Below are positions 29,445 through 44,023 of a stretch of 64,000 nt of DNA, piece by piece. The notes beneath the pieces are model-generated. The model was not told the origin of the DNA. It saw only the letters and a program-made list of their open reading frames with translations, and ran no database searches. The translations under genes and the position numbers were made by a program. How positions within the stretch are numbered: the first letter of the stretch is position 1; the number at the start of each line of letters is the position of its first letter. This stretch comes from Tenacibaculum dicentrarchi (GTDB lineage Bacteria; Bacteroidota; Bacteroidia; Flavobacteriales; Flavobacteriaceae), in the NCBI RefSeq assembly GCF_964036635.1, contig NZ_OZ038524.1, positions 384,001 to 448,000 of the forward strand, in the 5' to 3' direction.

Positions 29445-30416
29445 ATGGAAAAAATTATTCAAATAGATAGCGATTATATAGAAAATAACACTAATTTTTC
29501 AGCACTTATTACTGAATTAAAAGCTGCTTTTTCTTCGCAAGAAACCCTTGTTCCGATGCGTCATCATCACGATTTTGCAAACCCAGCAGTTAATGCAGAT
29601 TCTACCTTATTATTGATGCCAGCATGGAATCCTAGTAAAAATGCGGGAGTAAAAATAGTAACAGTAAGCCCCGAGAATCAGCAATTCGATTTGCCTTCAA
29701 TCAACGGAACGTATATTTATTTAGATGCTGTTAAAGGAACAATTAAAGCCATTTTAGAAGCCAAAAGTTTAACGGTAAAACGTACGGCATCGGCATCGGC
29801 ATTGGCATCTACTTTTTTATCCAAAGAAAATTCGTCGTCATTATTAATGATAGGAACAGGCGCTTTATCGGTTAATTTAATCAAAGCACACGCCTCGGTT
29901 CGTCCGATTAAAAACGTATTTATTTGGGGGCGTAATTTTTCTAAAGCACAAGCAATTTGCAAAACATTAAAAGAAGAAGATTTTACAATTACAGCCGTTC
30001 AAACTATCGAAGAAAAAATATCGGAAGTCGATATTATTTCGTGTGCAACGCTGTCAAAAACGCCGTTAGTTTTAGGGAAATATTTAAAAGCAGGACAACA
30101 TGTCGATTTAGTTGGAGCGTATAAAAAAGATATGCGTGAAGCGGATAATGAAGTTATCAAAAAAGGGGCAGTTTATATTGATACTTATCAAGGTGGATTA
30201 AAAGAAAGTGGCGATATTTTAATACCGTTACAAACAGGTATTTTAAAACAAGAAGATATTAACGCTGATTTATTTGAATTGTGTTCATCTAAAGAAATAG
30301 CAGAAGAAAAAGGACGTAAAAATGATGATGAAATTACTGTTTTTAAATCGGTAGGACACGCTTTAGAAGATTTAGCCGCCGCTAATTATTTCTATCATAA
30401 ATATATAAATCAGTAA
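29445..30416 (+). CDS. Ornithine cyclodeaminase/mu-crystallin family; probable 1-pyrroline-2-carboxylate reductase
   Basis: 323 aa, soluble, NAD(P)-binding. Family features: PMRHHHDFANP with the substrate-binding region, AILEAKSLTVKRTASASALAS, then a Rossmann fold from LLMIGTGALSVNLIKAHA to VFIWGRNFSKA, and VDIISCATLSKTPLVLGKYL. In this family true ornithine cyclodeaminases, alanine dehydrogenases and 1-pyrroline-2-carboxylate reductases are hard to separate by eye. Its location 4 bp upstream of a trans-3-hydroxyproline dehydratase, whose product is exactly 1-pyrroline-2-carboxylate, makes the reductase forming L-proline the best call. It opens the plus-strand arm of the island. Confidence 0.82.
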   Translation: MEKIIQIDSDYIENNTNFSALITELKAAFSSQETLVPMRHHHDFANPAVNADSTLLLMPAWNPSKNAGVKIVTVSPENQQFDLPSINGTYIYLDAVKGTIKAILEAKSLTVKRTASASALASTFLSKENSSSLLMIGTGALSVNLIKAHASVRPIKNVFIWGRNFSKAQAICKTLKEEDFTITAVQTIEEKISEVDIISCATLSKTPLVLGKYLKAGQHVDLVGAYKKDMREADNEVIKKGAVYIDTYQGGLKESGDILIPLQTGILKQEDINADLFELCSSKEIAEEKGRKNDDEITVFKSVGHALEDLAAANYFYHKYINQ

Positions 30417-30420
30417 AAAA

Positions 30421-31512
30421 ATGAGTAAAACATATCAAAATATACTTTCAAAAACTGATTTTAAACCAAATGAAAATTGGTTGCAAATTAAAACAATCGA
30501 CATGCACACAGGCGGAGAACCTTTGCGTGTAATTGTTGATGGATTTCCTGAATTAAAAGGAAATTCAGTTTTAGAATATCGACGTTATTGCAAAGAAAAT
30601 TTCGATAATTTACGAACCGCTTTAATGTTTGAACCTCGTGGACATCCTGATATGTACGGCTGTATTTTATTGCCTCCAAATCCTAAAGAAAACAATCAAA
30701 ATAACGAAGAAATAGGCGATTTTGGTATTATATTTCTTCATAATGAAGGATATTCGACCATGTGTGGTCATGCGATTATTGCTATTTCTACATTGGCTGT
30801 CGAAATGAATTGGATTGATGTTAAAGAAGGTGAAAATATTTTAAAAATTGATGCTCCTTGCGGACGAATTACCTCGTTTGCGAATGTGAAAAATGGTAAA
30901 GTAACAGGCGTTCGTTTTCATTGTGTGCCGAGTTTTGTGGTTGGTTTAGACAGAACTGTGGAGGTCGAAAATTTAGGAACTGTAACCTACGATTTGGCTT
31001 ACGGAGGTGCTTTTTACGCTTATGTCGATATGGCAAAAAATAATTTTAATTTTGATTTAAGCAGTAATTCGTATCGTGATTTAATTGCCAACGGAATGAA
31101 AATAAAACATGCCGTAATGCAAAATGATTCTGAAATTATTCATCCTTTAGAAGCCGATTTGAGCTTTTTATACGGAACTATTTTTGTTGATAATAACAAA
31201 CAACCTTCAGGAAACGATAGCAGAAATGTCTGTATTTTTGCCGAAGGAGAAGTCGATAGATGCCCAACAGGTTCGGGTGTTTCTGGAAGAATGGCAATTC
31301 ATAAAAAAAGAAATGAAATTGATTTTAATCAAACCATGAGCATTGAAAGTATTACCGATTCGGTATTTATTGGTGCTGTTATCTCTGAAGAAAAATATGG
31401 TCAATTTAATGCCGTAATTCCGCAGGTATCAGGAACGGCGTATATTACAGGAATGAATACCTTTGTAATCGACCCAAATGACCCGATGAAAGATGGATTT
31501 ATTCTTCGGTAA
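30421..31512 (+). CDS. Trans-3-hydroxy-L-proline dehydratase (proline racemase family)
   Basis: 363 aa. Proline-racemase fold with the first active-site cysteine C115 (YSTMCGHAI). The second active-site cysteine, which racemases and epimerases have in DRSPCGTG, is replaced by T283 in DRCPTGSG. The Cys/Thr pair is the published signature of trans-3-hydroxyproline dehydratases, which abstract one proton and lose water to give 1-pyrroline-2-carboxylate. The 39050-40057 paralogue in the same island keeps both cysteines, giving an internal contrast. It begins 4 bp after the reductase gene, and the two form a two-step route from trans-3-hydroxyproline to L-proline. No signal peptide, so cytoplasmic. 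Confidence 0.88.
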   Translation: MSKTYQNILSKTDFKPNENWLQIKTIDMHTGGEPLRVIVDGFPELKGNSVLEYRRYCKENFDNLRTALMFEPRGHPDMYGCILLPPNPKENNQNNEEIGDFGIIFLHNEGYSTMCGHAIIAISTLAVEMNWIDVKEGENILKIDAPCGRITSFANVKNGKVTGVRFHCVPSFVVGLDRTVEVENLGTVTYDLAYGGAFYAYVDMAKNNFNFDLSSNSYRDLIANGMKIKHAVMQNDSEIIHPLEADLSFLYGTIFVDNNKQPSGNDSRNVCIFAEGEVDRCPTGSGVSGRMAIHKKRNEIDFNQTMSIESITDSVFIGAVISEEKYGQFNAVIPQVSGTAYITGMNTFVIDPNDPMKDGFILR

Positions 31513-31625
31513 TTCTTAGGTAATTTTAAATGATTTTGGCTGATTTCGGCTAATCTTTAAAAATAAAATATTTTTTCTTCGGATAAAAAAACAGCATTTC
31601 TCATTATAGTTTTATAAAAAATAAG

Positions 31626-34600
31626 ATGGACTACAATCAAATAAAAATAGCAAATCAACAAGCGGAAGAAATTCTTTTAAAAACCTATAATATTAAAGGA
31701 ACTGCAACTGAATTACCTGGCGAATTAGATTTTAATTTCCGAATAAAAACACTCAGTTCAGAAGGGTATATTTTAAAAATTTCTCGTCCGAAGGAAGACG
31801 AAAATTATTTAGATTTTCAACAAAAATTATTGCAATATGTTGCTAAAAATAATGCTGAAATTATTGCTCCGAAAGTTATAAAAGATACTGAAGGAAATGT
31901 AATTTCTACTATAATTGACGCTTTTGGAAATGTTCGAAAAGTACGATTATTAACGTGGATTTCTGGGCGTGTTTGGTCGTCTGTAAATCCGCAATTAGAT
32001 AGTTTGCGTTTTAGTTTGGGCGAGCAATGCGGACTTTTAACCAAGGCGTTACAAGGTTTTAATCATGAAGAGGCAAAAAGAGAATTTGTTTGGGACGTAG
32101 CACAATCTCTTTGGACAAAAAAACATATCAATTTATTTGAAAATGAGCAAAAAGAAATTATAACTTATTATCAAACACAATTTGAAAATAATAAAATAAA
32201 CTATGATTCTTTAAGAAAATCAGTAGTTCATAATGATGCCAATGATAATAATGTTATTGTATCGAAAGAGCTTGTAAACCCAACAGTAAAAGCAGCGATT
32301 GATTACGGTGATGCCATTTATACGCAAGTAATTAATGATGTGGCAATTGCCTGTGCTTATGCAATTATGAATCATAATGAGCCGTTGGAATCGGCGTTAC
32401 ATATTGTAAAAGGCTATCATCAGAATTTTCCTTTACAAGAAAAAGAATTGGCACATTTATACGATGCTATTGCTATGCGATTGGTTATTTCCGTAACAAA
32501 ATCGGCAATTAATAAAATTGAAGAACCGAACAATAAATATTTACTGATAAGCGAAAAACCAGCTTGGGAAGTACTTAAAAAATGGCGTGAAATTCACCCT
32601 GATTTTGCGGAATATAATTTTAGAATTGCTTGTGGTTTTTCGGCACATCCGAATGAAAAAAAGTTTGAAAATTGGAGTTTAAAACATACTTTTTCTTTAG
32701 AAAATCTATTTCCAACAGTTCAAAAAAATAGTATTTTTCCTATTGATTTAAGTATTTCAAGCAAATGGATTGGGCATGAAAAAGAAGCAAATAATTTAGC
32801 ACTTTTTCAATTTAAAATTGATGAATTACAAAAAGAAAATCCTACAAAAATTATTGGTGGCGGTTATTTAGAACCTCGTGTTTTTTATACTGCTGATGCG
32901 TATCAAAAAATAGGAAATAACGGAAAAGAAAACCGAACAATTCATTTAGGAACCGATTTCTGGTTGCCAAAAAACACGTCTGTTCACGCTATTTTAGATG
33001 GGGAAGTTGTTATTTCTTCGGATAATCAAGGCGATAAAAATTACGGTGGATTATTAGTATTAAAACATCAAGCCGATAATTTTGAATTTTATACTTTATA
33101 CGGACATAATACGCCCGAAAGTGTACAAAAACATCAAGTAGGCGACCGAATTTTAAAAGGTGAAAAAATTGCAGAACTTGGCGATATTTCAGAAAACGGA
33201 AATTGGGTTCCTCATTTACATTTTCAAGTTTTATTATCATTATTTGATTTGAAAACAGATTTTCCAGGCGTAGCATATTTAAACGAAATGGAGGTTTGGA
33301 AAAGTGTTTGCCCAAACCCGAATTTACTTTTTAAATCGAAAGAATTAAACCAAAATAACAGCATTTCAAACAACGATTTAATCAAGTATCGAAAACAACA
33401 TTTAGGGAAAAGTTTAAGTTTGCAATACAAAACGCCCATAAAAATGGTGCGTGGTTCAGGCGTTTATTTAATCGACCAATTTGGAAATAAATATTTAGAT
33501 ACCGTAAATAATGTTGCACACGTTGGGCATGAAAATTACAATGTTGTAAAAGCAGGACAGCAACAAATGAGTTTAATTAACACAAACTCACGCTATTTAC
33601 ACGAAAATATCAATGAATTAGCCAAAGAACTCATTGAAACTTTACCGCCAGAATTAAATGTGTTACATTTTGTAAACTCTGGAAGTGAGGCAAATGAATT
33701 GGCAATTCGAATGGCAAAAGCCGTTACAGGCGAAAAAGATATTATCGCAAGTGAAATCGGTTATCACGGAAATGCGAATATGTGTATTGATATTTCTTCG
33801 TATAAATTTGATGGAAAAGGAGGAAATGGCGCACCAGAACACACGCAAATATTTCCGTTAGTCGATAGTTTTAGAGGGAAATATAGAGGTGAAAATACCG
33901 CAAAAAAATACGCTGATGAAGTTCAAAAATGTATCGATACCATTCAAAATAAAGGACGAAATGTAGGTGCATTTATTATAGAACCAATTATTAGTTGTGG
34001 CGGTCAGGTAGAATTACCAACAGGTTTTTTATCCGAAGCATATCAAAAAATTAGAAAAGTTGGTGGCGTTTGTATTTCTGATGAAGTACAAACTGGTTGC
34101 GGACGAATGGGAAAAACTTTTTGGGGTTTTCAATTGCACGATGTTGTTCCTGATATCATAACTATTGGAAAACCTTTAGGAAATGGGCATCCAATTGCGG
34201 CGGTTGCCTGTACTCAAAAAGTTGCCGAGGCATTTGCAAACGGTATGGAATATTTTAACACTTTTGGCGGAAATCCTGTTTCCTGTGCCATTGCAACCGA
34301 AGTAATTCGAACTGTAAAAAGAGATAAATTGCAAGAAAATGCGTTAGAAGTTGGGAATTATTTAAAATCATCATTAAAAGAACTTTCTAAAGAATTTCCA
34401 ATTATTGGCGATGTAAGAGGGCAGGGGCTTTTCTTAGGAATTGAGTTCGTTGATTCTCAATTAAATCCACTCGCTTCTCATGCCGATTATATCGCAAACA
34501 GAATGAAAAATTACGGAATTTTAATGAGTACCGATGGAGCAGACCATAATGTGTTAAAAATAAAACCACCAATTGTTTTCACCAAAGAAAATGCCGAAGA

Positions 34601-34655
34601 AGTACTTTTTTATCTAAAGAAAATATTAAAAGAGGATTTTATGAAGGTTGTTTAA
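31626..34655 (+). CDS. Fusion of APH-type kinase, M23 peptidase and class-III aminotransferase-fold lyase
   Basis: 1009 aa without signal peptide. Residues about 1-330 are an aminoglycoside-phosphotransferase-like kinase: VVHNDANDNN (H202, D204, N209) and IDYGD (D226). About 430-545 is an M23 domain with intact zinc ligands H440, D444 and H530/H532. About 590-1005 is a PLP fold-type-I class-III enzyme with SGSEAN (685-690), D819 in SDEVQTG and the PLP lysine K849 (TIGKPLGNG). Human hydroxylysine kinase and 5-phosphohydroxylysine phospho-lyase belong to the same two outer families, and bacterial fusions of this shape exist. Hydroxylysine breakdown is thus my preferred role; phosphoethanolamine-type lyase or another amino alcohol is the alternative. 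It lies 113 bp after the dehydratase. Confidence 0.85.
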   Translation: MDYNQIKIANQQAEEILLKTYNIKGTATELPGELDFNFRIKTLSSEGYILKISRPKEDENYLDFQQKLLQYVAKNNAEIIAPKVIKDTEGNVISTIIDAFGNVRKVRLLTWISGRVWSSVNPQLDSLRFSLGEQCGLLTKALQGFNHEEAKREFVWDVAQSLWTKKHINLFENEQKEIITYYQTQFENNKINYDSLRKSVVHNDANDNNVIVSKELVNPTVKAAIDYGDAIYTQVINDVAIACAYAIMNHNEPLESALHIVKGYHQNFPLQEKELAHLYDAIAMRLVISVTKSAINKIEEPNNKYLLISEKPAWEVLKKWREIHPDFAEYNFRIACGFSAHPNEKKFENWSLKHTFSLENLFPTVQKNSIFPIDLSISSKWIGHEKEANNLALFQFKIDELQKENPTKIIGGGYLEPRVFYTADAYQKIGNNGKENRTIHLGTDFWLPKNTSVHAILDGEVVISSDNQGDKNYGGLLVLKHQADNFEFYTLYGHNTPESVQKHQVGDRILKGEKIAELGDISENGNWVPHLHFQVLLSLFDLKTDFPGVAYLNEMEVWKSVCPNPNLLFKSKELNQNNSISNNDLIKYRKQHLGKSLSLQYKTPIKMVRGSGVYLIDQFGNKYLDTVNNVAHVGHENYNVVKAGQQQMSLINTNSRYLHENINELAKELIETLPPELNVLHFVNSGSEANELAIRMAKAVTGEKDIIASEIGYHGNANMCIDISSYKFDGKGGNGAPEHTQIFPLVDSFRGKYRGENTAKKYADEVQKCIDTIQNKGRNVGAFIIEPIISCGGQVELPTGFLSEAYQKIRKVGGVCISDEVQTGCGRMGKTFWGFQLHDVVPDIITIGKPLGNGHPIAAVACTQKVAEAFANGMEYFNTFGGNPVSCAIATEVIRTVKRDKLQENALEVGNYLKSSLKELSKEFPIIGDVRGQGLFLGIEFVDSQLNPLASHADYIANRMKNYGILMSTDGADHNVLKIKPPIVFTKENAEEVLFYLKKILKEDFMKVV

Positions 34656-34895: not shown

Positions 34896-36116
34896 TTATT
34901 TTGAAATTCCAAAAGGGTCTTCAATGCTATACATTGGTTCCGTAAACCATTTCGGGCCATTTTCGGTCATATAAATATGGTCTTCATGACGGATTCCAAA
35001 TTTATTAGGAACACAAATCATTGGCTCATTACTGAAAGTCATTTTTTCGACTAAAACAGTATTGTCATTTTTAACAATATATGGCCATTCATGAATATTT
35101 AAACCAATTCCATGCCCTGTTCTGTGTGGTAAACCAGGTAAATCATATTTTGGTCCAAGCTGATGACTTTCTAATGTTTTTCTAGCGGCAGCATCAATAT
35201 CGGCACAAACATTGCCTAATTGAGCGGCATCAAAAGCGGCTTGTTGGGTTTCTTTTTCAATATTCCAAATTGACCTTTGTAAATCATCCGCTTCACCAAA
35301 AACATAGGTTCTTGTAATATCAGAAATATAATCGTGTAAAACACAACCTGTATCTATTAAAACAACTTCGTTTAATGCTAAATTTTTAGGTTTTTTTACA
35401 CCGTGTGGAAATGATGAATCGACCCCAAAGAGTACGATACAAAAATAAGAACCAGCAGTTGCACCATAACGAATATGTGCTTCGTGGATAAAATCTTCGA
35501 CTTCTTTAGCTGAAATTCCAACCCTTAAAATACGAGCTGCGGCTTTTTGAACCTCTAAAGTGATGTTCATTGCGTGTTGCATAATGGCAATTTCAGCATC
35601 CGATTTTATCATTCTACAACCTGCGGTAATTGGCGTTGCACTTTCTAGGGTAAATATTTCGTTACATTTATTAATCCCATCGACAATGAAAAAAGGTGTT
35701 GCTTCATCCATCAAAATAACGCCTTTATTTACCTTGTTTTTTGTCAAGATTTTGGTAAATAATTTATAAGGACTTTTGTGTTCTTCCCAACAATTAACTT
35801 CGCCTTTTATTAGCATGAAATCTAAAATTGTTCCTTTTTCAAATTTTGGTGCGATAAAATGCAAATCACCATTTTGAAATAAAATTGCACCGACCATTCG
35901 TTCGCTCGAACTCCATTTCATTCCTGTAAAATAGAATAAATTTGTTCCAGCGTGTAGATACATTGCCTGTTTATTTTGATTTTTCATCAATTGGCAAGCT
36001 TTGTTTATTCTTTGTTGAAACTCTTCTTTTTGAATCGGTTCAACTAAGTGAGCCGTTGGAGTTATGGCATTTAATTCTGCTTCTATGGTAGAACCTCCGA
36101 TTCCAAATGTATTCAT
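34896..36116 (-). CDS. M24 metallopeptidase, Xaa-Pro dipeptidase/aminopeptidase type (1)
   Basis: 406 aa, cytoplasmic. Creatinase-like N-terminal domain followed by the pita-bread M24 fold with all five metal ligands: two Asp in LIDTGCVLHDYISDITRTYV, His in HRTGHGIGLNIHEWP, Glu in FSNEPMICVP and Glu in GIRHEDHIYM. Such enzymes cut the imido bond before Pro (and hydroxyproline) in dipeptides or at peptide N-termini. It is the last gene of the minus-strand hydroxyproline unit, 31 bp after a second M24 gene. The two share little sequence and probably differ in substrate length. The location predicts action on collagen-type Xaa-Pro/Hyp peptides. Confidence 0.88.
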   Translation of the reverse strand: MNTFGIGGSTIEAELNAITPTAHLVEPIQKEEFQQRINKACQLMKNQNKQAMYLHAGTNLFYFTGMKWSSSERMVGAILFQNGDLHFIAPKFEKGTILDFMLIKGEVNCWEEHKSPYKLFTKILTKNKVNKGVILMDEATPFFIVDGINKCNEIFTLESATPITAGCRMIKSDAEIAIMQHAMNITLEVQKAAARILRVGISAKEVEDFIHEAHIRYGATAGSYFCIVLFGVDSSFPHGVKKPKNLALNEVVLIDTGCVLHDYISDITRTYVFGEADDLQRSIWNIEKETQQAAFDAAQLGNVCADIDAAARKTLESHQLGPKYDLPGLPHRTGHGIGLNIHEWPYIVKNDNTVLVEKMTFSNEPMICVPNKFGIRHEDHIYMTENGPKWFTEPMYSIEDPFGISK

Positions 36117-36147: not shown

Positions 36148-37440
36148 TTAACTGTTCATTAATGCTTCAATATCCTTAATTTCGATAGGCATTTTGGCAG
36201 TTAAATTGATATTTCCATTTTCTGTAATTAGATAATCATCTTCTAAACGACAACCAATTCCTTCTTCGGCGATATAAATTCCAGGTTCACAAGTAAGTAT
36301 CATTCCCGCTTCAAAAGGACGAGAATATAAACCAACATCATGCACATCTAACCCTAAATAATGGGCAGTTCCGTGCATAAAATATTTTTTATATAAAGGC
36401 TTTTCAGGGTCTTGATTAGCCACTTCATCGGCATCTAATAAGTTTAATTTTATCAGTTCAGCTTCGACTAAACTTGCCATATTTTTTTCATAATCAGCAG
36501 GTAAAATTCCTGCTTTTAAAAGTTTACTACCTTCTTTCAAACAATGTAAAACCGAGGTATAAACAGCAGCTTGTCTTTCAGAAAATTTCCCATTTACAGG
36601 AAAACAACGAGTAGTATCGCTATTGTAATTTGCATAGCAAACGCCGAAATCAAGTAAAATCATTTCACCGTCTTTACAAACCGAATCGTTAGTATTATAA
36701 TGCAAAGCACAAGCGTTTTGTCCTGAAGCAACAATCGGTTGAAAAGCGTGATGTGAAGCTCCAGATTTGACTAAATTATAGGTTAATTCTGCCTCTAATT
36801 CGTATTCATTTTTGCCAGGTTTACATGCCTTTAAAATACGAGAAAAAGATTCTACGCTAATATCGGTTGCTTTTTGTGTTAATTCGTGTTCAATTGTTAA
36901 TTTTACAGGACGTAAATCACGGGTGATTTTTGCCGCACGATAATATTGATGTAACGGATATTTTTGTTTACACCATTTTATCATTCTATCTTGTTGGGTT
37001 TCTTGATTATTGGTAGCACGTTTATAGTGTTCGTTATGCCCTAAATAAAAACTATCAGCTTCAAAAGCCATTGCTTGTAAAACGCTTTCAAAATCTTTGT
37101 TCCAAATTACTCTTGAAATCCCTGAAATTTCAGTAGCTTTTTCTTGGGTTAATTTTTCACCGTCCCAAATTTTGATGAGTTCACTAGTTTCTTTTATGAA
37201 TAAAATCGCGCGATTTTCTTTTTTATAAGCATCAGGATACAGCACTAAAATAGTTTCTTCTTGGTCAATTCCCGAAAGGTAAAAAAGGTCATTATTTTGT
37301 GTAAATCCCATTACATCATCGGCATTGTTGTGTTTCACATCGTTTGATGTTAAAATAGCGATGCTGTTGGGTTGCATTTTGGCTGTAAAACGCTTTCTAT
37401 TTTCTATAAATAACGAGTTATTAATTTGTTCGTAACGCAT
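36148..37440 (-). CDS. Aminopeptidase P-type M24 metallopeptidase (2)
   Basis: 430 aa with the AMP_N N-terminal domain (NSLFIENRKRFTAKMQPNSI, LFYLSGIDQEETILVLYP) and a C-terminal M24 domain. Metal ligands: two Asp in LLDFGVCYANYNSDTTRCF, His in FMHGTAHYLGLDVHDVG, Glu in LTCEPGIYI and Glu in GCRLEDDYLI. This is the standard PepP layout; it removes an N-terminal residue that precedes proline. It is followed by the other M24 gene and preceded, with a 44-bp gap, by the FAD oxidase, so it belongs to the hydroxyproline unit. A housekeeping pepP elsewhere cannot be excluded. Confidence 0.9.
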   Translation of the reverse strand: MRYEQINNSLFIENRKRFTAKMQPNSIAILTSNDVKHNNADDVMGFTQNNDLFYLSGIDQEETILVLYPDAYKKENRAILFIKETSELIKIWDGEKLTQEKATEISGISRVIWNKDFESVLQAMAFEADSFYLGHNEHYKRATNNQETQQDRMIKWCKQKYPLHQYYRAAKITRDLRPVKLTIEHELTQKATDISVESFSRILKACKPGKNEYELEAELTYNLVKSGASHHAFQPIVASGQNACALHYNTNDSVCKDGEMILLDFGVCYANYNSDTTRCFPVNGKFSERQAAVYTSVLHCLKEGSKLLKAGILPADYEKNMASLVEAELIKLNLLDADEVANQDPEKPLYKKYFMHGTAHYLGLDVHDVGLYSRPFEAGMILTCEPGIYIAEEGIGCRLEDDYLITENGNINLTAKMPIEIKDIEALMNS

Positions 37441-37484: not shown

Positions 37485-38732
37485 TTACGCGTATCTTTCT
37501 GTATGAAACGGGCTTAAATCGAGGCTTGTTTTTTTATCAGAAATTACTTCGGATATTAATTTTCCTGTTGCGGGTCCTAAACTCCATCCCATCATGGCGT
37601 GTCCTGTTGCTACGGTTACGTTTTTCACTTTTGATAAACGTCCGATATATGGCAATCCATCAGGCGAACAGGGTCTTAATCCAGAGGCTACATCGTCAAT
37701 TTCTTTCTGGCTAATTTTTAAATTTTGATAAAAGCGTTCACTTGCTTTTGCGATGGCATTTACACGTACTTTATTGATATTGGTATTAATTTTATCAACT
37801 TCCATAGTTCCTGCAAAACGAGTAAAACCGTTCATTGGCGTTACAGCAACTTTTGCTTCCATTAAAATGGCAGGAATGGTAATTCCTGTTTCTTGAGATA
37901 CATTAATTCGGTATCCTTTTCCAGCTTGAATAGGAATTGTAGTATTCAATTTTTTCATTAGAATTTGCGACCAAGAGCCAGTTGCCACGACTATTTCATC
38001 AGGAGTAAATTCTTGTTTGTTTGTTTTCAGAGAAGTTACTTTATTGCCAGTTACGTTAATGTCAAGCACTTCTTCATTGGCTAAAATTGTAACGCCATTT
38101 TTTTCTAAATATCGTTTTAATTGTGGCATAAATTCACTTGGAGTCATGTGTGAATCGGTGTGATAATAAATGGCACCTTTAATATTTAAACCTGCATTTG
38201 GTTCTAATTTCAGTACTTGTTCTTTTGATAAATTCTCAACATTTAAGCCTTCTTGAATGGCACGTTTTCCTGTATTCCATTCTTCTTCACCAGTTTTATC
38301 GGTTTGATAACACATTAACAATCCTTTATGCTGATAAAAGAAATCAAAATCGTTGGAAGCTTTAATATCTTCGTATAATTCTCTACTTAAAAGGTTGATA
38401 TCTTTGATAGGTTTAATTGAGCTTTCTACTTTTTGTTTGGTAGAAGCTTTTTTAAAGAGCCATGACCATTTCACAAAATCATAATCCAATCGAGGTTTCA
38501 CAGAAAATGGACTTTTTGAATCGAACATCCATTTAATACCTTTGTTTATCATCCCTGGGGCTGCCAAAGAAATAATATGACTTGGCGTAATATATCCTGC
38601 ATTTACATAAGATGCACCACTTGAGAAATCAGATTTATCAATAACGGTAACTTTGTGTCCTTCTTTTTGAAGGTAATACGCTGAACATAAGCCTATAATT
38701 CCTCCACCAATAATTACTACTTCTTTTGACAT
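37485..38732 (-). CDS. FAD-dependent D-amino-acid oxidoreductase, probable cis-4-hydroxy-D-proline oxidase/dehydrogenase
   Basis: 415 aa, DadA/DAO superfamily. N-terminal FAD-binding Rossmann motif VVIIGGGIIGLCSAYYLQKE (GGGIIG at 9-14), the middle VVATGSWSQILMKKL and the C-terminal GLRPCSPDGLPYIGR and ATGHAMMGWSLGPATGKLIS. In this operon it is placed to oxidise cis-4-hydroxy-D-proline, the product of the epimerase two genes upstream, to 1-pyrroline-4-hydroxy-2-carboxylate. The family alone would also allow a general D-amino acid dehydrogenase; the cluster decides. It starts 8 bp after the small DUF3781-like gene. Confidence 0.88.
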   Translation of the reverse strand: MSKEVVIIGGGIIGLCSAYYLQKEGHKVTVIDKSDFSSGASYVNAGYITPSHIISLAAPGMINKGIKWMFDSKSPFSVKPRLDYDFVKWSWLFKKASTKQKVESSIKPIKDINLLSRELYEDIKASNDFDFFYQHKGLLMCYQTDKTGEEEWNTGKRAIQEGLNVENLSKEQVLKLEPNAGLNIKGAIYYHTDSHMTPSEFMPQLKRYLEKNGVTILANEEVLDINVTGNKVTSLKTNKQEFTPDEIVVATGSWSQILMKKLNTTIPIQAGKGYRINVSQETGITIPAILMEAKVAVTPMNGFTRFAGTMEVDKINTNINKVRVNAIAKASERFYQNLKISQKEIDDVASGLRPCSPDGLPYIGRLSKVKNVTVATGHAMMGWSLGPATGKLISEVISDKKTSLDLSPFHTERYA

Positions 38733-38740: not shown

Positions 38741-39043
38741 TTATTTTAAACTTACGCTTTTAATTATTTGATTAACGGTAATAATTCTAAAAGTACTAGT
38801 ATTAACTGTAATAGTAATATTATGTTTTTTGTTAGTAATGTAGAAGTTTTTACCTATTTTTTCGTAGTCATCTAAAGCGGTATCTTCCAATACCTTTTGA
38901 ATAAGTGTTTCTATTTCAAATTTAGAAAAAGCTATACCGAGCTTTTTATTTATCCGTTGATAAACAAGCTCGGTATAGCAATGATTTTTGAGTATTTTAT
39001 GTTTTATTGTTTCCAATTTTGTTTTTAAATTGAAAGATAACAT
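38741..39043 (-). CDS. Small protein, DUF3781-like
   Basis: 100 aa, basic. The pattern NHCYTELVYQRINKKLGIAF followed by FEIETLIQKVLEDT and KNFYITNKKHNITITVNTST resembles DUF3781, a small family without assigned function. It has no catalytic motif, membrane segment or metal-binding cluster that I can see. The spacing is tight on both sides (8 bp to the oxidase, 6 bp to the epimerase), so it is translated from the hydroxyproline catabolic mRNA. Whether it serves the pathway, perhaps as a regulator, or is a passenger is unknown. The family name is from memory and moderately sure. Confidence 0.65.
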   Translation of the reverse strand: MLSFNLKTKLETIKHKILKNHCYTELVYQRINKKLGIAFSKFEIETLIQKVLEDTALDDYEKIGKNFYITNKKHNITITVNTSTFRIITVNQIIKSVSLK

Positions 39044-39049
39044 TTTTTT

Positions 39050-40057
39050 TTAGATAACTTGAAAACCGTGTGCATAAGGATCATCTTGGTCATCAATAAT
39101 AATATTATTGTAACCAAAAACCTTAGCCCAACCTTGAATACTAGGTATAATTGCAGGTTTTCCGTTTAAAGAAGTTTCTTCTTCTACACGCCCAATAAAC
39201 TTACTTCCGATAAAACTTTCGTGGATAAATTCTTCTTTTAATTGAAGTTTTCCTTTGGCGTGTAACTGTGCTAACCTAGCAGATGTTCCTGTTCCACAAG
39301 GGCTTCTATCGATGGCTTTATCACCATAAAAAACAGCATTTCTACCTGATGAAGTAGGGTCAATAGGATTTCCTGTCCATAACATATGGGTTACATCTCT
39401 AATGGTATCATTTTCAGGATGAATAAACATATCAGGATATTTCTCATTGATACGATCTCTTACAACCTGCGAATATTGGATGATTTTACTAGCAGTAAAA
39501 TCGTGTACTCCAGAAAAGTTTTTCTGTGGATCTACAATGGCGTAATAATTTCCTCCGTAAGAAACGTCAAAGGTAATTTCGCCTAATTCAGGGCAATCAA
39601 TCGTTAAATTCTCAGCAGCTAAATAACTTTTTACGTTTGTTAAACGAACCCAGTCCACTTTTTTACCTGTTTGTCCGTATTCGATATTTACTAAACCTGC
39701 GGGTGCTTCCATTTTAATTTTACCAGGAATTTTTGGCGTAATTAAACCTTCTTCAATCGCAATAGTAATAGTTCCGATAGTTCCGTGTCCGCACATTGGC
39801 AAACATCCAGAAGTTTCGATAAATAAGATTCCAAAATCGTTTTCAGGATTGTGAGGTGGAAATAAAATACTTCCACTCATCATATCGTGTCCTCTTGGTT
39901 CGAACATTAATCCTTTACGAATCCAGTCATATTCTTTTAAAAAATGCTGACGTTTTTCGCTCATATTTGCTCCAATTAAGTTTGGACCACCACCAGCAAC
40001 AACTCTTACAGGATTTCCGCAAGTGTGTGCATCAACGCAAAAAAATGTTTTTCTCAT
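39050..40057 (-). CDS. 4-hydroxyproline 2-epimerase (proline racemase family)
   Basis: 335 aa. Both catalytic cysteines of the two-base mechanism are present: C89 (GCLPMCGHG) and C254 (DRSPCGTGTS). FEPRGHDMMSGSILFPP and the HTCGNPVRVV start are typical of 4-hydroxyproline epimerases rather than proline racemases. The enzyme inverts C2 of trans-4-hydroxy-L-proline to cis-4-hydroxy-D-proline, step one of the ketoglutarate route. FAD oxidase, deaminase and semialdehyde dehydrogenase genes for the remaining steps are all in the same minus-strand run. A 203-bp leader with a possible large hairpin precedes it, so it may also have its own promoter. Confidence 0.93.
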   Translation of the reverse strand: MRKTFFCVDAHTCGNPVRVVAGGGPNLIGANMSEKRQHFLKEYDWIRKGLMFEPRGHDMMSGSILFPPHNPENDFGILFIETSGCLPMCGHGTIGTITIAIEEGLITPKIPGKIKMEAPAGLVNIEYGQTGKKVDWVRLTNVKSYLAAENLTIDCPELGEITFDVSYGGNYYAIVDPQKNFSGVHDFTASKIIQYSQVVRDRINEKYPDMFIHPENDTIRDVTHMLWTGNPIDPTSSGRNAVFYGDKAIDRSPCGTGTSARLAQLHAKGKLQLKEEFIHESFIGSKFIGRVEEETSLNGKPAIIPSIQGWAKVFGYNNIIIDDQDDPYAHGFQVI

Positions 40058-40071
40058 AGTAAAATTGAATA

Positions 40072-40260: not shown

Positions 40261-41787
40261 TTAATTTCTTAATTCAGTAGGTAGTAATTCGGTTGGCCAA
40301 TCTTGAAAACTAAAAGGACGCACCCATCTTTTAATAGCTCCTAAACCTACGGCTGTAAATCTAGAATCTGAAGAAGCAGGGTAAGGGCCTCCATGTGTCA
40401 TTGATTCGCAAACTTCAACACCTGTTGGAACACCGTTAAAAATAATTCTTCCAACCTTTGCCTGTAAAGCATCTGCTACTGCAGGTAAAGCGTCAAAATC
40501 TTCTTTTTCCGCTAAAACCGTACCTGTTAATTGCCCTTCTAAATGGTCAATAACATTTAATAATTCTGCTTGATCTTTTGCTTTTACAACTAATGAAAAA
40601 GGACCAAAAACTTCGGTGTGCATTTTAGGATTTGCTAAAAATTCAGTACCTGATACAGCACAAATTGTTGATGCAGCAAAATTTGCTTCAACAGTTTCTG
40701 TAATTTGACCAACAACCTGAACACCTGGTTGAGAGGTTACAATTTCAGCATTTGAAACAAAACCGTTTTTAATATTTGGGTGTAACATACACTGTGGTGC
40801 AATTGCTACAGTTTTTTCGGCTAAATCTTTTACAAAAGCATCTGTTTGATCTCCTTCAATGGTTAGTAATAAACCAGGGTTTGTACAAAACTGCCCTGTT
40901 CCAACAGTAATTGAACCAGCGTATGTACTAGCCGTTTCTGCTGCTTTATTTTTGATAACATTTGGTAATACAACTACAGGGTTGATACTTCCCATTTCAG
41001 CAAATACTGGAATTGGTTGGTCTCTTTGTGCTCCTAAATTGTAAAGTGCTCTACCACCTGCAATACTTCCTGTAAAACCAACTGCTTTTACCTTTGGATG
41101 TTTTACTAAGGCGCTACCAACAACTCTTCCGCTACCTGTAATGTTTGAAAATACACCGTTTGGCATTCCTGTTTTTTCGGCTGCTTTTATAATTGCTGAT
41201 GCGACTAATTCACCCGTTCCTGAGTGCATTGCATGCGATTTTACAATTACAGGACATCCTGAAGCTAAGGCACTAGCAGTATCTCCACCTGCGGTAGAAA
41301 ATGCCAATGGAAAATTACTTGCTGCAAATACCACAACAGGTCCTAAAGGAATTGATGTTTTTCTAAGGTCAGATTTTGGTAAAGGCTGTCTTGTAGGGAT
41401 AGCTTGGTCAATTGTTACATTTCTCCATTGATCTTTAGCAACGAAATCAGCAAAAGCTCTTAACTGCCCAACCGTTCTACCTCTTTCTCCTTGAGCTCTT
41501 CCTTCTGGTAAACCAGATTCTGACATATACATATCAGTAAGTTCAGTATCTAAGGCTAAAATTTCATCTGCGATAGCATTTAAAAATTCGGCTCTTTTTT
41601 CTCCTGAAACTTTACGATATACTTTAAAAGCCTTATCTGCTAACTCAACAGCTTCGTTTACCTCTTCTAAAGTTGCTTGATAAAAATCTGTTGGGTTTTG
41701 TATATTTAACTTCGGATTTACGGTTTTATGCGTTGTTGTTCCTGATGCTTTTAATTGATTTCCTATATAATTTTTTCCTGTAATCAT
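40261..41787 (-). CDS. Alpha-ketoglutarate semialdehyde (2,5-dioxovalerate) dehydrogenase
   Basis: 508 aa NADP-type aldehyde dehydrogenase. Catalytic and cofactor residues: N158 (FAASNFP), the GFTGSIAGGRAL cofactor loop, E264 (FAEMGSINP) and the nucleophile C301 (VGTGQFCTNPG). The EMGSINP and TGQFCTNPG variants are characteristic of the 2,5-dioxovalerate dehydrogenase branch. It converts alpha-ketoglutarate semialdehyde, made by the DapA-family deaminase encoded just upstream, to alpha-ketoglutarate for the TCA cycle. The 317-bp gap before it contains a strong hairpin and a sequence shared with the operon promoter. Confidence 0.92.
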   Translation of the reverse strand: MITGKNYIGNQLKASGTTTHKTVNPKLNIQNPTDFYQATLEEVNEAVELADKAFKVYRKVSGEKRAEFLNAIADEILALDTELTDMYMSESGLPEGRAQGERGRTVGQLRAFADFVAKDQWRNVTIDQAIPTRQPLPKSDLRKTSIPLGPVVVFAASNFPLAFSTAGGDTASALASGCPVIVKSHAMHSGTGELVASAIIKAAEKTGMPNGVFSNITGSGRVVGSALVKHPKVKAVGFTGSIAGGRALYNLGAQRDQPIPVFAEMGSINPVVVLPNVIKNKAAETASTYAGSITVGTGQFCTNPGLLLTIEGDQTDAFVKDLAEKTVAIAPQCMLHPNIKNGFVSNAEIVTSQPGVQVVGQITETVEANFAASTICAVSGTEFLANPKMHTEVFGPFSLVVKAKDQAELLNVIDHLEGQLTGTVLAEKEDFDALPAVADALQAKVGRIIFNGVPTGVEVCESMTHGGPYPASSDSRFTAVGLGAIKRWVRPFSFQDWPTELLPTELRN

Positions 41788-41867: not shown

Positions 41868-41885
41868 GCTTACTTATGCTTAAAT
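41868..41885. promoter_or_regulatory. Candidate AraC operator upstream of the semialdehyde dehydrogenase gene
   Basis: GCTTACTTATGCTTAAAT contains two GCTTA units. The same unit pair, more tightly spaced, occurs at 43071-43084 in the divergent promoter of the regulator and the deaminase. Confidence 0.3.
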
Positions 41886-41992
41886 AAATAATTATTTGTT
41901 GTTGTTGTTAACAAAGTTAAATTAACTATTTAAAGGTACTAAAGTATTTTAATTTTAAAGGCTCTTTTAATGTTAAAAAATAGATTTAAAAC

Positions 41993-42031
41993 AACAAATC
42001 ATTGTCTTATAAATTAAGACAATGATTTGTT
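41993..42031 (-). terminator. Strong hairpin between the deaminase and the dehydrogenase genes
   Basis: AACAAATCATTGTCTTA pairs perfectly with TAAGACAATGATTTGTT over 17 bp around a 5-nt loop. No long T run follows on the minus strand, so it may be an attenuator, RNA-stabilising element or partial terminator. The remainder of the 317-bp gap 41788-42104 holds the candidate operator and no gene. Confidence 0.6.
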
Positions 42032-42104
42032 AAATTGTATGGCAAATTATCTAACATTCTATAATCTTAAAATTAAAGATTAAAACGATAAATTTCACTT
42101 AAAA

Positions 42105-43034
42105 TTAAGCTAAAACCGCTAATTCTTTATATTCAGGTAATGTAGGTCTTGTTTTTAAACCATTTTCAATAATAGCTAAAACGTTTGCTCTTTCTTCACC
42201 GATTAATGGTAAACGAGGCTCACGCACATTTTCAGTACCAATACCTGTAGCAACTTCTGCTAGTTTAATATTTTGTACTAATTTAGAGTTGATGTCTAAT
42301 TCTAATAAAGGTAAGAACCAACGGTAAATTTCTCTAGCTTCGTTACCTCTTCCTGCGTTTGCTAAGTTAAAAATAGCAACAGTTTCAGCAGGGAAAGCAC
42401 ATACTAAACCAGCAACCCAACCGTCAGCACCCATAAAGATACTTTCTAAAGCTAAGGTATCAACTCCTGATAATATTTGTAATCTATCACCAAAACGATT
42501 TTTAATACGTGTAATATTTGATAAATCTCTAGTCGATTCTTTTACAGCTTCGATATTTGGGCAGTCACGTAATAACTCTTCAAACATATCTAAAGTAACT
42601 TCGATACCATAATCAACAGGGTTATTATACACCATAATTGGTAAAGAGGTACTGTTTGCTACTTTTTTAAAGTAAGTTACAGTTTCTCTGCTATCAGCTT
42701 TATAACGCATTGGAGGCAACATCATTAATGCAGATGCTCCATCTTCTTTAGCTTTTCTAGCAGCGTCGATTGCAGCAGTAGTAGTTTGTTCTGCAACATT
42801 CATTATAACAGGTACTTGACCATCTACAACTTCGACTGCTTTTCTTACAATGACTCTTTTTTCGTCATCTGTAAGCGTGCTAGCTTCTCCTAAAGTTCCC
42901 CCTAAAATAATTCCAACAACACCTGCGTTTAATTGTGCTTTAATATTTAGTTCAAAATTAACTAAATCTAACGTGTCTTCATTTGTAAATTTAGTAGTAA
43001 CAGCTGGCATTACGCCTTTCCAGTTTATGTTCAT
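42105..43034 (-). CDS. DapA-family lyase, probable 1-pyrroline-4-hydroxy-2-carboxylate deaminase
   Basis: 309 aa, TIM-barrel dihydrodipicolinate synthase family. GGTLGEASTLTDDEK, the catalytic tyrosine Y136 (IMVYNNPVDYG) and the Schiff-base lysine K165 (IEAVKESTRD) are all present. In hydroxyproline clusters this branch deaminates 1-pyrroline-4-hydroxy-2-carboxylate to alpha-ketoglutarate semialdehyde; here the neighbouring epimerase, oxidase and semialdehyde dehydrogenase support that role over lysine biosynthesis. It is the first gene of the minus-strand unit, divergent from the AraC regulator. Confidence 0.88.
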   Translation of the reverse strand: MNINWKGVMPAVTTKFTNEDTLDLVNFELNIKAQLNAGVVGIILGGTLGEASTLTDDEKRVIVRKAVEVVDGQVPVIMNVAEQTTTAAIDAARKAKEDGASALMMLPPMRYKADSRETVTYFKKVANSTSLPIMVYNNPVDYGIEVTLDMFEELLRDCPNIEAVKESTRDLSNITRIKNRFGDRLQILSGVDTLALESIFMGADGWVAGLVCAFPAETVAIFNLANAGRGNEAREIYRWFLPLLELDINSKLVQNIKLAEVATGIGTENVREPRLPLIGEERANVLAIIENGLKTRPTLPEYKELAVLA

Positions 43035-43047
43035 GTGTTTTTTTAGG

Positions 43048-43055
43048 CAAATTTA
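43048..43055 (-). promoter_or_regulatory. Putative -7 box of the hydroxyproline operon
   Basis: TAAATTTG on the minus strand, 13 bp before the deaminase ATG, matching TAnnTTTG. The candidate operator 43071-43084 overlaps where the upstream promoter region should be. Confidence 0.45.
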
Positions 43056-43070
43056 TAATTGATTTTTAAA

Positions 43071-43084
43071 GCTTAATGCTTAAT
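43071..43084. promoter_or_regulatory. Candidate AraC operator in the divergent promoter region
   Basis: Tandem direct repeat GCTTAAT GCTTAAT with no spacer, between the divergent regulator and deaminase genes. A related GCTTA pair occurs upstream of the dehydrogenase gene. AraC proteins usually bind direct repeats. Confidence 0.35.
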
Positions 43085-43183
43085 TTTTAACAAGATAGTA
43101 TATTATATTATCTTTTTATGAAGTTTTAGTTCTTTTTTAGGTGAATATTTTATAGATTTATACAAAATATTTTACTCGCAATT

Positions 43184-44023
43184 ATGAAGGTTTTACCATT
43201 TAAAATACCAAAAACTAAGAATTTAGGTTTAATTTATGAAGAGGATAAAGGTCCTTTTTTTTATGATAAGTTTCATCAACATGAAGAAATTCAAATGTGT
43301 TATGTTGTTAAGGGTGAAGGAACTTTAATTGTTGGAGATACTGTTAATGAGTATAAGGCTAATGATATTTTAGTGATTGCAGGTAATCAACCTCATGTTT
43401 TTAAAAGTGATAATTCAAAAATAAAAGAATCATTTATGATTTCACTTTTTTTTACTAAAAAATCATTTGGTGACAATTTTTTTGAATTAGATGATTTTAA
43501 AGAAATTGCAGGTTTTTTTAATACCGTTAAAAATAGTTTTAGGGTGAAATCTAATCAAAATAAAATTAAAAAATTATTTTTAAAACTTCAAGGAGAAAAA
43601 GATTTAATGAAGTTTATTATTTTTTTAAAAATTATAAAACTTATATTAAAATCAGAAATCACATCGTTATCAACATTTGTATATGAAAAAAAATACACAG
43701 ATAATGAAGGAAAACGTATGCGTGATATTATGGATTATACCTTGAGTAATTTTAATAAAAAAATAGAATTAGATGATATTGCAGCTGTAGCAAATATGAC
43801 TTCAAATGCTTTTTGCAGGTATTTTAAACAAAGAACTAATAAAACATTTTTTACTTTTTTAAATGAATTACGTATTGAAACTGCATGTAAGTTATTACAA
43901 AATAGAGATTATTCAATTATTGAAGTTTCCGAAAAAGCGGGTTTTAAAAATATTTCAAATTTTAATAGAAAATTTAAAGAGTTAAAACATAAAACGCCTT
44001 CAAATTATAGGTTAAATTATTAA
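43184..44023 (+). CDS. AraC-family transcriptional regulator of the hydroxyproline island
   Basis: 279 aa. N-terminal cupin (HQHEEIQMCYVVKGEGTLIV, NDILVIAGNQPHVFKSDN) for effector sensing, and a C-terminal double HTH (about 185-279): IELDDIAAVANMTSNAFCRY, FKQRTNKTFFTFLNELRIET and the signature IIEVSEKAGFKNISNFNRKF. It is transcribed away from the deaminase gene across 149 bp, the classical layout of a local activator. Hydroxyproline or a pathway intermediate is the probable inducer, an inference from position. Confidence 0.92.
   Translation: MKVLPFKIPKTKNLGLIYEEDKGPFFYDKFHQHEEIQMCYVVKGEGTLIVGDTVNEYKANDILVIAGNQPHVFKSDNSKIKESFMISLFFTKKSFGDNFFELDDFKEIAGFFNTVKNSFRVKSNQNKIKKLFLKLQGEKDLMKFIIFLKIIKLILKSEITSLSTFVYEKKYTDNEGKRMRDIMDYTLSNFNKKIELDDIAAVANMTSNAFCRYFKQRTNKTFFTFLNELRIETACKLLQNRDYSIIEVSEKAGFKNISNFNRKFKELKHKTPSNYRLNY

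What the first reader, a model, noticed from the sequence alone, without database searches (positions are those of the whole stretch)
29445..44023. Catabolic island covering trans-4-hydroxyproline, trans-3-hydroxyproline and probably hydroxylysine: a collagen-derived amino acid system
Seen: a Cys/Cys proline-racemase-family epimerase, a DadA-type FAD oxidase, a DapA-family lyase and a ketoglutarate-semialdehyde-type dehydrogenase (full 4-hydroxyproline route); a Cys/Thr dehydratase plus an ornithine-cyclodeaminase-family reductase (3-hydroxyproline to proline); two M24 Xaa-Pro-type peptidases; an APH-kinase/PLP-lyase fusion; a divergent AraC regulator. Known: 3-Hyp, 4-Hyp and 5-hydroxylysine occur together mainly in collagen. 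Inference: the whole block is for using collagen peptides, which would fit a bacterium living on animal tissue. No transporter or collagenase is in the block, so uptake must be encoded elsewhere.
Basis: partly seen in the sequence, partly recalled or inferred. Interest (0 to 1): 0.8.

Follow-up and report, generated by a model that had tools for sequence, protein, structure and literature searches.

The report
Collagen modified-amino-acid breakdown gene island
A marine bacterium close to a fish pathogen carries a gene block that probably breaks down the modified amino acids of collagen, and related bacteria add enzymes that would first strip the sugars from collagen's hydroxylysine, a bacterial route that I did not find described.

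Summary
Missed: an intact M23 domain inside the fusion, a DUF3781 gene, an S37 peptidase next door. The hydroxylysine guess is supported by comparison. In 80 named loci of the fusion, a GH63 (YgjK-like) glucosidase is directly upstream in 41 of 76, a GH2 beta-galactosidase directly downstream in 39 of 74, and hydroxyproline genes are near in 23 of 80. In two other genomes GH42 replaces GH2. Some loci add aminoadipate-semialdehyde dehydrogenase (AASADH) and 2-oxoadipate dioxygenase. This fits removal of Glc-Gal from collagen hydroxylysine, then phosphorylation, elimination and oxidation; phosphoethanolamine would need none of it. The window's genome has AASADH, the dioxygenase and a secreted M9 collagenase elsewhere, but no GH63 or galactokinase match. 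Against: M9 does not track the fusion, 19 of 80 loci lack these neighbours, and no activity has been measured.

The parts
28000..29310 (-).
   Evidence: Pfam PF05576 192 bits; S37 match in 13 of 80 relatives' loci, in several at the same place beside OCD
29445..30416 (+). Ornithine-cyclodeaminase-family reductase, probably pyrroline-2-carboxylate reductase (3-hydroxyproline branch)
   Evidence: NF004793 376.7 bits, cut-off 322
30421..31512 (+). Proline-racemase-family protein with Cys/Thr pair, probably trans-3-hydroxy-L-proline dehydratase
   Evidence: Best NCBIfam NF045511 356.7 bits, below its cut-off 540; motifs MCGH and DRCPTG; nearest solved chain is named proline racemase (6r76, 394 bits), next a trans-3-hydroxy-L-proline dehydratase (7qpo, 296 bits)
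31626..34655 (+). Tri-domain fusion: APH-type kinase, M23 peptidase, class-III PLP lyase; proposed hydroxylysine kinase / 5-phosphohydroxylysine phospho-lyase
   Evidence: Pfam; nearest solved chain ethanolamine-phosphate phospho-lyase 6tor 433 bits; catalytic residues kept across 96 relatives
31704..32369 (+). APH kinase domain, residues 27-248 (H202, D204, N209, D226)
32940..33230 (+). M23 (LytM-type) peptidase domain, residues 439-535 (H440, D444, H494, H530, H532, each kept in 95 of 96 aligned sequences)
33432..34628 (+). Class-III PLP domain of the phospho-lyase kind, residues 603-1001 (PLP lysine K849)
34896..36116 (-). M24 peptidase (Xaa-Pro type, creatinase/prolidase N-domain)
36148..37440 (-). 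M24 peptidase (aminopeptidase P type, AMP_N)
37485..38732 (-). DadA-type FAD oxidoreductase, proposed D-hydroxyproline dehydrogenase
   Evidence: PF01266 225 bits; NF001933 262 bits, below its cut-off 383
38741..39043 (-). DUF3781 protein, 100 aa; role unknown; also in L003, L004 (T. finnmarkense), L005 (T. piscium) and L064 (a Polaribacter)
39050..40057 (-). 4-hydroxyproline 2-epimerase, Cys/Cys
   Evidence: NF010578 583.6 bits, cut-off 376; motifs
40261..41787 (-). Aldehyde dehydrogenase, proposed 2-oxoglutarate semialdehyde dehydrogenase
   Evidence: PF00171 185 bits; nearest solved chain 3v4c, aldehyde dehydrogenase (NADP+), 459 bits
42105..43034 (-). DapA-family lyase, proposed pyrroline-4-hydroxy-2-carboxylate deaminase
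   Evidence: PF00701 197 bits; solved relatives are mostly dihydrodipicolinate synthases
43184..44023 (+). AraC-family regulator, divergent from the lyase; an AraC gene is likewise divergent from DHDPS in L100 and L111

Best explanation
The island is a catabolic cluster for collagen's modified amino acids. trans-4-Hydroxyproline goes through epimerase, D-hydroxyproline dehydrogenase, deaminase and semialdehyde dehydrogenase to 2-oxoglutarate; trans-3-hydroxyproline goes through dehydratase and reductase to proline; peptidases cut Xaa-Pro/Hyp peptides. The fusion is a hydroxylysine enzyme: the APH domain phosphorylates 5-hydroxylysine and the PLP domain eliminates ammonia and phosphate to give 2-aminoadipate 6-semialdehyde. 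In this genome that would be finished by AASADH (C1:2789572-2790996), an aminotransferase that I did not identify, the 2-oxoadipate dioxygenase HglS (C1:2021639-2022292) and the D-2-hydroxyglutarate dehydrogenase relative next to it, giving 2-oxoglutarate. In many relatives the same fusion sits beside a GH63 alpha-glucosidase and a beta-galactosidase that would first remove Glc-alpha-1,2-Gal from hydroxylysine; this lineage seems to have lost that arm. Shown: gene content, homology, linkage, residue conservation. Inferred: every substrate and the direction of flow.
For: Families and motifs. Fusion linked to hydroxyproline genes: 23 of 80 named loci; 26 of 57 genomes within 20 kb of the epimerase. 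GH63 directly upstream in 41 of 76 and GH2 directly downstream in 39 of 74 named loci. GH63 in 27 of 72 fusion genomes against 3 of 227 others, 19 of the 27 within 100 bp. GH63 also sits among hydroxyproline genes in two fetched stretches that hold no fusion: L110 (G390, with GH2) and L111 (G552). In two other genomes the galactosidase is GH42 instead of GH2 (L091, L092). Galactokinase, GalT, GalM, SSS transporter and SusC/D near the fusion in part of the loci. AASADH within about 10.5 kb of the kinase-lyase in six loci (L060, L091, G300, G315, G541, G516); the only 3 second AASADH copies in 40 fusion genomes are among them, and 40 genomes without the fusion have none. HglS family PF07063 within 10 kb of the kinase-lyase in 6 of the 12 genomes that have it, of 80 searched. 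Own genome: AASADH 822 bits, cut-off 730, PF07063, YdiJ-like dehydrogenase beside it, M9 collagenase with T9SS-type tail. The GH63 neighbour's nearest solved relative is E. coli YgjK (254 bits), which I recall prefers Glc-alpha-1,2-Gal.
Against: The PLP domain's nearest solved relative is the phosphoethanolamine enzyme, and no sequence test here separates the two substrates. 19 of 80 named loci show neither these glycosidases nor the epimerase or dehydratase (five of the 19 loci are cut short by contig ends). Of the ten loci taken from the class-wide search, five (L084, L087-L090) show no such neighbour. 1 of 80 named loci holds AASADH and 2 of 80 hold HglS; PF07063 is absent from 68 of 80 genomes. 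AASADH as such is near-universal (40 of 40 with, 36 of 40 without the fusion). 5 of the 23 named loci with epimerase or dehydratase also have galactose genes, so sugar and hydroxyproline genes are often apart. M9 is in 1 of 72 fusion genomes and 1 of 227 others. The window's own genome has no GH63 match (E 1e-60) and no galactokinase signature. Dehydratase, FAD oxidoreductase, aldehyde dehydrogenase and DapA-type lyase do not reach the specific NCBIfam cut-offs.
Confidence: 0.82

Rival explanations
1. The fusion is an ethanolamine kinase / phosphoethanolamine phospho-lyase making acetaldehyde, placed by chance next to hydroxyproline genes.
For: Nearest solved structure is an ethanolamine-phosphate phospho-lyase, 433 bits, and next the Arthrobacter phospholyase, 295 bits (source organisms recalled).
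Against: No reason for GH63, GH2/GH42, galactose genes, AASADH or HglS beside it. By eye I saw no ethanolamine genes beside the fusion in the 15 loci printed (14 of the 19 loci without the usual neighbours, plus L058); no family search for ethanolamine genes was run.
Confidence: 0.08
2. The fusion and its glycosidases act on another galactosylated amino alcohol of marine origin, not on collagen hydroxylysine; the hydroxyproline genes serve other hydroxyproline-rich proteins.
For: Hosts include marine genera such as Gelidibacter, Polaribacter and Maribacter (names; that they are largely free-living is recalled); M9 collagenase is nearly absent from the family.
Against: AASADH and 2-oxoadipate dioxygenase neighbours fit a six-carbon aminoadipate skeleton; 3-hydroxyproline genes and proline-type peptidases are in the same clusters.
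Confidence: 0.07
3. An ordinary hydroxyproline cluster with an unrelated neighbour; the linkage is a clade-specific accident.
For: 57 of 80 named loci of the fusion hold fewer than two of the core hydroxyproline genes by the clustering used.
Against: Linkage recurs for divergent fusions of 44-53 percent identity (G349, G412, G496, G403) with differing genes in between (L099, L100).
Confidence: 0.03

Closest known systems
Bacterial trans-4-hydroxyproline and trans-3-hydroxyproline catabolic clusters (proline racemase superfamily neighbourhoods, PMC4113996, passages seen)
   Same: Same enzyme families: 4-hydroxyproline epimerase, D-amino-acid oxidase family, DHDPS family, aldehyde dehydrogenase; t3Hyp dehydratase with OCD-family Pyr2C reductase
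   Different: Adds the kinase-M23-lyase fusion and, in relatives, glycosidases and aminoadipate enzymes; the word 'aminotransferase' occurs 0 times in that paper's main text
Vertebrate hydroxylysine kinase and 5-phosphohydroxylysine phospho-lyase (HYKK/AGPHD1, PHYKPL/AGXT2L2; Veiga-da-Cunha 2012, not held; its title seen only as a reference in PMC8154272; the rest recalled)
   Same: Same two enzyme families; I recall that the 2012 work was prompted by bacterial bi- and trifunctional fusions of this kind
   Different: Separate proteins in vertebrates, no M23 domain (recalled); I do not know of a test of the bacterial fusions' substrate
Ethanolamine-phosphate phospho-lyase (6tor) and Arthrobacter phospholyase (5g4i)
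   Same: Nearest solved relatives of the PLP domain
   Different: Neighbours of the fusion point to sugar removal and aminoadipate metabolism
E. coli YgjK, GH63 glucosidase
   Same: Nearest solved relative of the GH63 neighbour, with the WESG-x-D and ENY-x-P blocks shared
   Different: The neighbour is shorter (about 670 against 760 aa), has a lipoprotein-like start by eye, and adjoins the fusion
Animal PGGHG (GH65), which removes glucose from Glc-Gal-hydroxylysine (PMC8626586, passages seen)
   Same: Proposed reaction of the GH63 neighbour
   Different: Different glycoside hydrolase family
HglS, 2-oxoadipate dioxygenase/decarboxylase branch of lysine catabolism
   Same: Pfam PF07063 match beside the fusion in some relatives and in the own genome
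   Different: Known to me from lysine catabolism (recalled); here linked to hydroxylysine-type genes

Membership tests
trans-4-hydroxyproline catabolic cluster | 4-hydroxyproline epimerase with Cys/Cys | tested here: met
   NF010578 583.6 bits over cut-off 376; MCGH and DRSPCG
trans-4-hydroxyproline catabolic cluster | D-hydroxyproline oxidase, DHDPS-family deaminase and semialdehyde dehydrogenase together with it | tested here: met
   Family level only: DAO, DHDPS and Aldedh matches; specific NCBIfam cut-offs not reached
trans-3-hydroxyproline route | Cys/Thr proline-racemase-family dehydratase | tested here: inconclusive
   Cys/Thr motif present and best NCBIfam model is trans-3-hydroxy-L-proline dehydratase, but 356.7 bits is below cut-off 540; nearest solved chain is named proline racemase
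trans-3-hydroxyproline route | Pyr2C reductase partner | tested here: met
   NF004793 376.7 bits over 322
Hydroxylysine kinase / 5-phosphohydroxylysine phospho-lyase | APH kinase and class-III PLP phospho-lyase with intact catalytic residues | tested here: met
Hydroxylysine kinase / 5-phosphohydroxylysine phospho-lyase | Genomic tie to a hydroxylysine source or to aminoadipate-semialdehyde metabolism | tested here: met
   In relatives: glycosidases, AASADH and HglS beside the fusion; in the window itself only hydroxyproline genes
Hydroxylysine kinase / 5-phosphohydroxylysine phospho-lyase | Activity on 5-hydroxylysine and 5-phosphohydroxylysine | not testable with these tools
   needs an assay
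Ethanolamine-phosphate phospho-lyase | Ethanolamine genes in the neighbourhood | tested here: inconclusive
   None seen by eye in the 15 loci printed; no family search for ethanolamine genes was run
Polysaccharide utilisation locus (SusC/D) | SusC/SusD pair in the locus | tested here: not met
   None among the window proteins scanned; a SusC cluster in 28 of 80 relatives' loci
M23 peptidase | HxxxD and HxH zinc and catalytic residues | tested here: met
   H440, D444, H530, H532 present here and in 95 of 96 aligned sequences

The most novel reading that the evidence does not exclude
Marine Bacteroidota have a dedicated system for collagen's glucosyl-galactosyl-hydroxylysine: glucosidase, galactosidase, then one polypeptide that frees hydroxylysine from Hyl-Gly peptides with its LytM-type M23 domain, phosphorylates it and eliminates ammonia and phosphate. 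The product runs either through 2-oxoadipate and D-2-hydroxyglutarate or, in at least one genome (G300), through a 2,3-aminomutase and beta-ketoadipate branch from 2-aminoadipate to succinyl-CoA and acetyl-CoA.
Probability: 0.3. Interest if true: 0.85.

Novelty: new variant of a known kind. Interest (0 to 1): 0.7.

Why it matters
Collagen is abundant in animals and its hydroxylysine is often glycosylated; I found no description of a bacterial route for these glycosides (searches, of an incomplete library and mostly as capped listings). If true, one set of genes explains how bacteria can recycle them, gives the bacterial kinase-lyase fusions a substrate, suggests a natural role for YgjK-type GH63 enzymes, and shows that a Tenacibaculum close to the fish pathogen T. 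dicentrarchi can use hydroxyproline and hydroxylysine together.

Tried and rejected
Collagenase as a marker of the system: rejected, M9 is in 2 of 299 genomes, the own genome and G417. Presence of AASADH as a marker: uninformative, near-universal; only the extra copies beside the fusion are informative. A class-wide sample was too thin for statistics (11 of 295 genomes with any match), but gave the GH63-GH42 loci. A viral-contig search for the G300 aminomutase gave nothing. Literature: the 2012 hydroxylysine kinase paper is not held; a search for aminoadipate with aminomutase and oxoadipyl-CoA found 0 papers; I did not see YgjK's preferred disaccharide stated in the listing (15 of 30 papers listed) or passages seen. 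No structure prediction was run: I judged that it would not separate the two candidate substrates. Three further GH63 stretches were looked at: GH63 with GH2 but no fusion (L112, L115) and GH63 alone (L114).

Rows dropped or added: of 117 genomes with a match, 72 were counted as carrying the kinase-M23-lyase fusion (four of these are partial at contig ends or split: G331, G584, G568, G516); 45 were dropped (mostly APH-lyase proteins of about 750 aa without M23; G327 and G550 with APH-M23 only; four M23-only proteins; short pieces such as G356 and G373 that may be parts of fusions). The HypE count uses 153 genomes, of which 150 had a printed place; three (G375, G507, G512) were added from the genome table. 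The 96 sequences include truncated ones and at least one gene taken twice (L116 and L117). The 40 genomes without the fusion were picked by hand from those without a match.
Full report
WHAT IS THERE. The window lies at C1:384001-448000 of a 2,808,268-base genome. The fusion protein is 97-98 percent identical to proteins named Tenacibaculum dicentrarchi and 92-93 percent to those of T. finnmarkense and T. piscium, so the host is a Tenacibaculum close to T. dicentrarchi (a fish pathogen, recalled). Rightward: OCD-family reductase, Cys/Thr proline-racemase-family protein, kinase/lyase fusion. AraC is divergent from the lyase. An S37 peptidase lies just outside (28000-29310).

HYDROXYPROLINE PART. 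The epimerase passes the curated cut-off for 4-hydroxyproline epimerase (583.6 against 376 bits) and the OCD protein passes that for pyrroline-2-carboxylate/piperideine-2-carboxylate reductase. The other assignments are at family level only. The published neighbourhood analysis of the proline racemase superfamily names the same partner families (PMC4113996, passages seen). This part is of a known kind.

THE FUSION HAS THREE DOMAINS. APH kinase (27-248), M23 peptidase (439-535) and class-III PLP domain (603-1001). The PLP domain is of the phospho-lyase kind: 433 bits to ethanolamine-phosphate phospho-lyase 6tor, 295 to the phospholyase 5g4i, 173 to the next enzyme, a decarboxylase. In an alignment of 96 distinct sequences (some truncated, at least one gene twice) the kinase D204, N209 and D226 and the PLP lysine are invariant, and each of the M23 residues H440, D444, H494, H530 and H532 is kept in 95; the script lists L101 as the one without the zinc ligands. 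The nearest solved M23 relatives are LytM glycyl-glycine endopeptidases, 36 bits, a weak match that fits the fold better than it fixes the specificity.

NEIGHBOURS IN NAMED RELATIVES. By clustering of ORFs at 40 percent identity, 23 of 80 loci have at least two of OCD, dehydratase, epimerase, FAD oxidoreductase, DapA-type lyase. A 670-aa protein lies directly upstream in 41 of 76 loci with enough upstream sequence, mostly within about ten bases, and a 1045-aa protein directly downstream in 39 of 74. Representatives are a GH63-type glucosidase (MGH1-like and YgjK_N domains; nearest solved chain YgjK, 254 bits) and a GH2 beta-galactosidase (779 bits to a solved one). The GH63 representative shares YgjK's WESG-x-D and ENY-x-P blocks, where the general acid (Asp501, PMC7263609 passage) and, as I recall, the base lie. 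In the same loci: galactokinase in 15, GalT in 10, GalM in 14, an SSS transporter in 14 and SusC in 28 of 80. Of the 23 loci with epimerase or dehydratase, 17 also have GH63 or GH2 and 5 have a galactose gene. 19 of 80 loci have none of GH63, GH2, epimerase and dehydratase; five of these are cut short by contig ends, L056 has galactokinase and GalT, and L046 has S37, DUF885, aldehyde dehydrogenase and AraC relatives.

FAMILY-LEVEL TEST. In 299 genomes of the host's family (236 genera) the fusion is in 72 by my count (see dropped rows), GH63 in 30, the epimerase in 153. 27 of the 30 GH63 genomes have the fusion (Fisher p about 6e-16), 19 of the 27 within 100 bp and 24 within 5 kb; 59 of 72 fusion genomes have the epimerase against 94 of 227 others (p about 8e-10), and in 26 of the 57 with printed places it is within 20 kb. 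These p values ignore shared ancestry. In L110 (G390) GH63 and GH2, and in L111 (G552) GH63, lie among hydroxyproline genes with no fusion in the 19 kb fetched, so the glycosidases are tied to hydroxyproline genes independently. Other GH63 stretches show GH2 without fusion or hydroxyproline genes (L112, L115) or GH63 alone (L114).

OTHER AND MORE DISTANT GENOMES. Of the ten loci taken from the class-wide search (L083-L092), five have such neighbours: L083 hydroxyproline genes; L085 a GH63 relative about 6.5 kb away; L086 GH2; L091 and L092 GH63, then a GH42 beta-galactosidase, then a kinase-lyase without M23. Five (L084, L087-L090) have none. G101 (L091) is of the host's family, G041 (L092) of another. 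A different galactosidase family in the same place is most simply explained by the activity. Of ten further loci that I chose (L093-L102), L099 and L100 have hydroxyproline genes and L101 has GH63, fusion and GH2; the others, some of which hold only part of the fusion, do not show them.

DOWNSTREAM ENZYMES BESIDE THE FUSION. If the product is 2-aminoadipate 6-semialdehyde, AASADH should follow. AASADH is in 40 of 40 fusion genomes and 36 of 40 without, which says little; but 3 of the 40 fusion genomes have a second copy, and these lie 0.2, 10.2 and 10.4 kb from the fusion, while none of the 40 others has one. More cases: L060, L091, G516. PF07063, named 2-oxoadipate dioxygenase/decarboxylase, adjoins AASADH in L060, L091, G315, G541 and G516, and lies near the fusion in L041, G350 and G452 too (Pfam was run on three of these, the others by similarity or by the genome search). 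Of 80 genomes searched (72 with the fusion, 8 others) 12 have PF07063, and in 6 of the 12 it is within 10 kb of the kinase-lyase (P about 2e-9 by a uniform-placement model). L060 and L091 also carry relatives of the D-2-hydroxyglutarate dehydrogenase YdiJ (the L091 one 582 bits, under its cut-off of 1350). L091 thus reads, on one strand: 2-oxoadipate dioxygenase, AASADH, GH63, GH42, kinase-lyase, 2-hydroxyglutarate dehydrogenase relative. An acetaldehyde-forming enzyme would need none of these. Among the 80 named loci only 1 holds AASADH and 2 hold PF07063.

THE WINDOW'S OWN GENOME. AASADH at C1:2789572-2790996 (822 bits, over cut-off 730; 574 bits to solved antiquitin); PF07063 at C1:2021639-2022292, beside an AsnC-like regulator (by eye) and a YdiJ-like dehydrogenase (66 percent identical to that of L060). 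An M9 collagenase of 1452 aa with M9 N-domain, PKD, GEVED and a T9SS sorting tail (25.7 bits, just under that model's cut-off of 27) is at C1:1814146-1818501. No GH63 match at E 1e-60 and no galactokinase signature. T. piscium keeps GH63 between dehydratase and fusion (L005); the window and two T. finnmarkense loci have only about 115 bases there. So this lineage seems to have dropped the sugar-removing arm.

HOW IT PROBABLY WORKS. Secreted collagenase and peptidases make small peptides; M24 enzymes cut before proline or hydroxyproline; free trans-4-hydroxyproline goes to 2-oxoglutarate, trans-3-hydroxyproline to proline; hydroxylysine is phosphorylated and lysed by the fusion and oxidised to 2-oxoglutarate. 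In relatives GH63 would take off glucose and GH2/GH42 galactose first. The M23 domain may free hydroxylysine from Hyl-Gly peptides, since collagen hydroxylysine is followed by glycine (recalled); this is the weakest step, because kinase-lyases without M23 exist next to GH63 (L091, L092).

WHAT SPEAKS AGAINST. No biochemical test; I could not tell the lyase's substrate from its sequence; M9 does not track the fusion (1 of 72 against 1 of 227, p 0.42); most loci carry no AASADH or PF07063 neighbour; hosts include genera that I know as free-living.

NOVELTY. I recall that the 2012 paper identifying human hydroxylysine kinase and phospho-lyase started from bacterial fusions; it is not held here, so the fusion itself is probably not new. 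I did not find the tie to glucosidase, galactosidase, galactose genes and aminoadipate enzymes in ten searches of an open-access library that lacks most subscription papers; some searches listed only the top 15-20 of 170, 75, 669 and 30 papers. The known reaction on Glc-Gal-hydroxylysine is that of animal PGGHG, a GH65 enzyme (PMC8626586, passages).

Noticed in passing
   Followed up: partly
L096 9525-10163 and L097 9562-10200 (G576, G368): Stand-alone M23 protein 44 percent identical to the middle domain of the fusion, near DUF4407 and DUF4440 relatives of the kind that accompany the fusion elsewhere.
   Followed up: no
L093 8852-10606 (G327): Kinase-M23 protein without the lyase domain.
   Followed up: no
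L101 8075-11059: Fusion of near-normal length whose M23 part no longer matches Pfam and has lost its zinc residues, still between GH63 and GH2.
   Followed up: no
L066 20163-21884 and others; L083 354-1904: A DUF885 protein recurs beside the epimerase and aldehyde dehydrogenase genes of relatives; L083 also has an M61 glycyl aminopeptidase beside them.
   Followed up: no
window 44078-44866: Asp/Glu racemase-family gene directly after AraC, followed by OmpH-like genes and a POTRA-domain gene; looks like housekeeping, not part of the island.
   Followed up: no
L058, 6253-7560 relative to the fusion start; L060 8401-9729: Permease-like protein (by eye, no family search) near the fusion in two loci; a candidate amino-acid transporter.
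   Followed up: no
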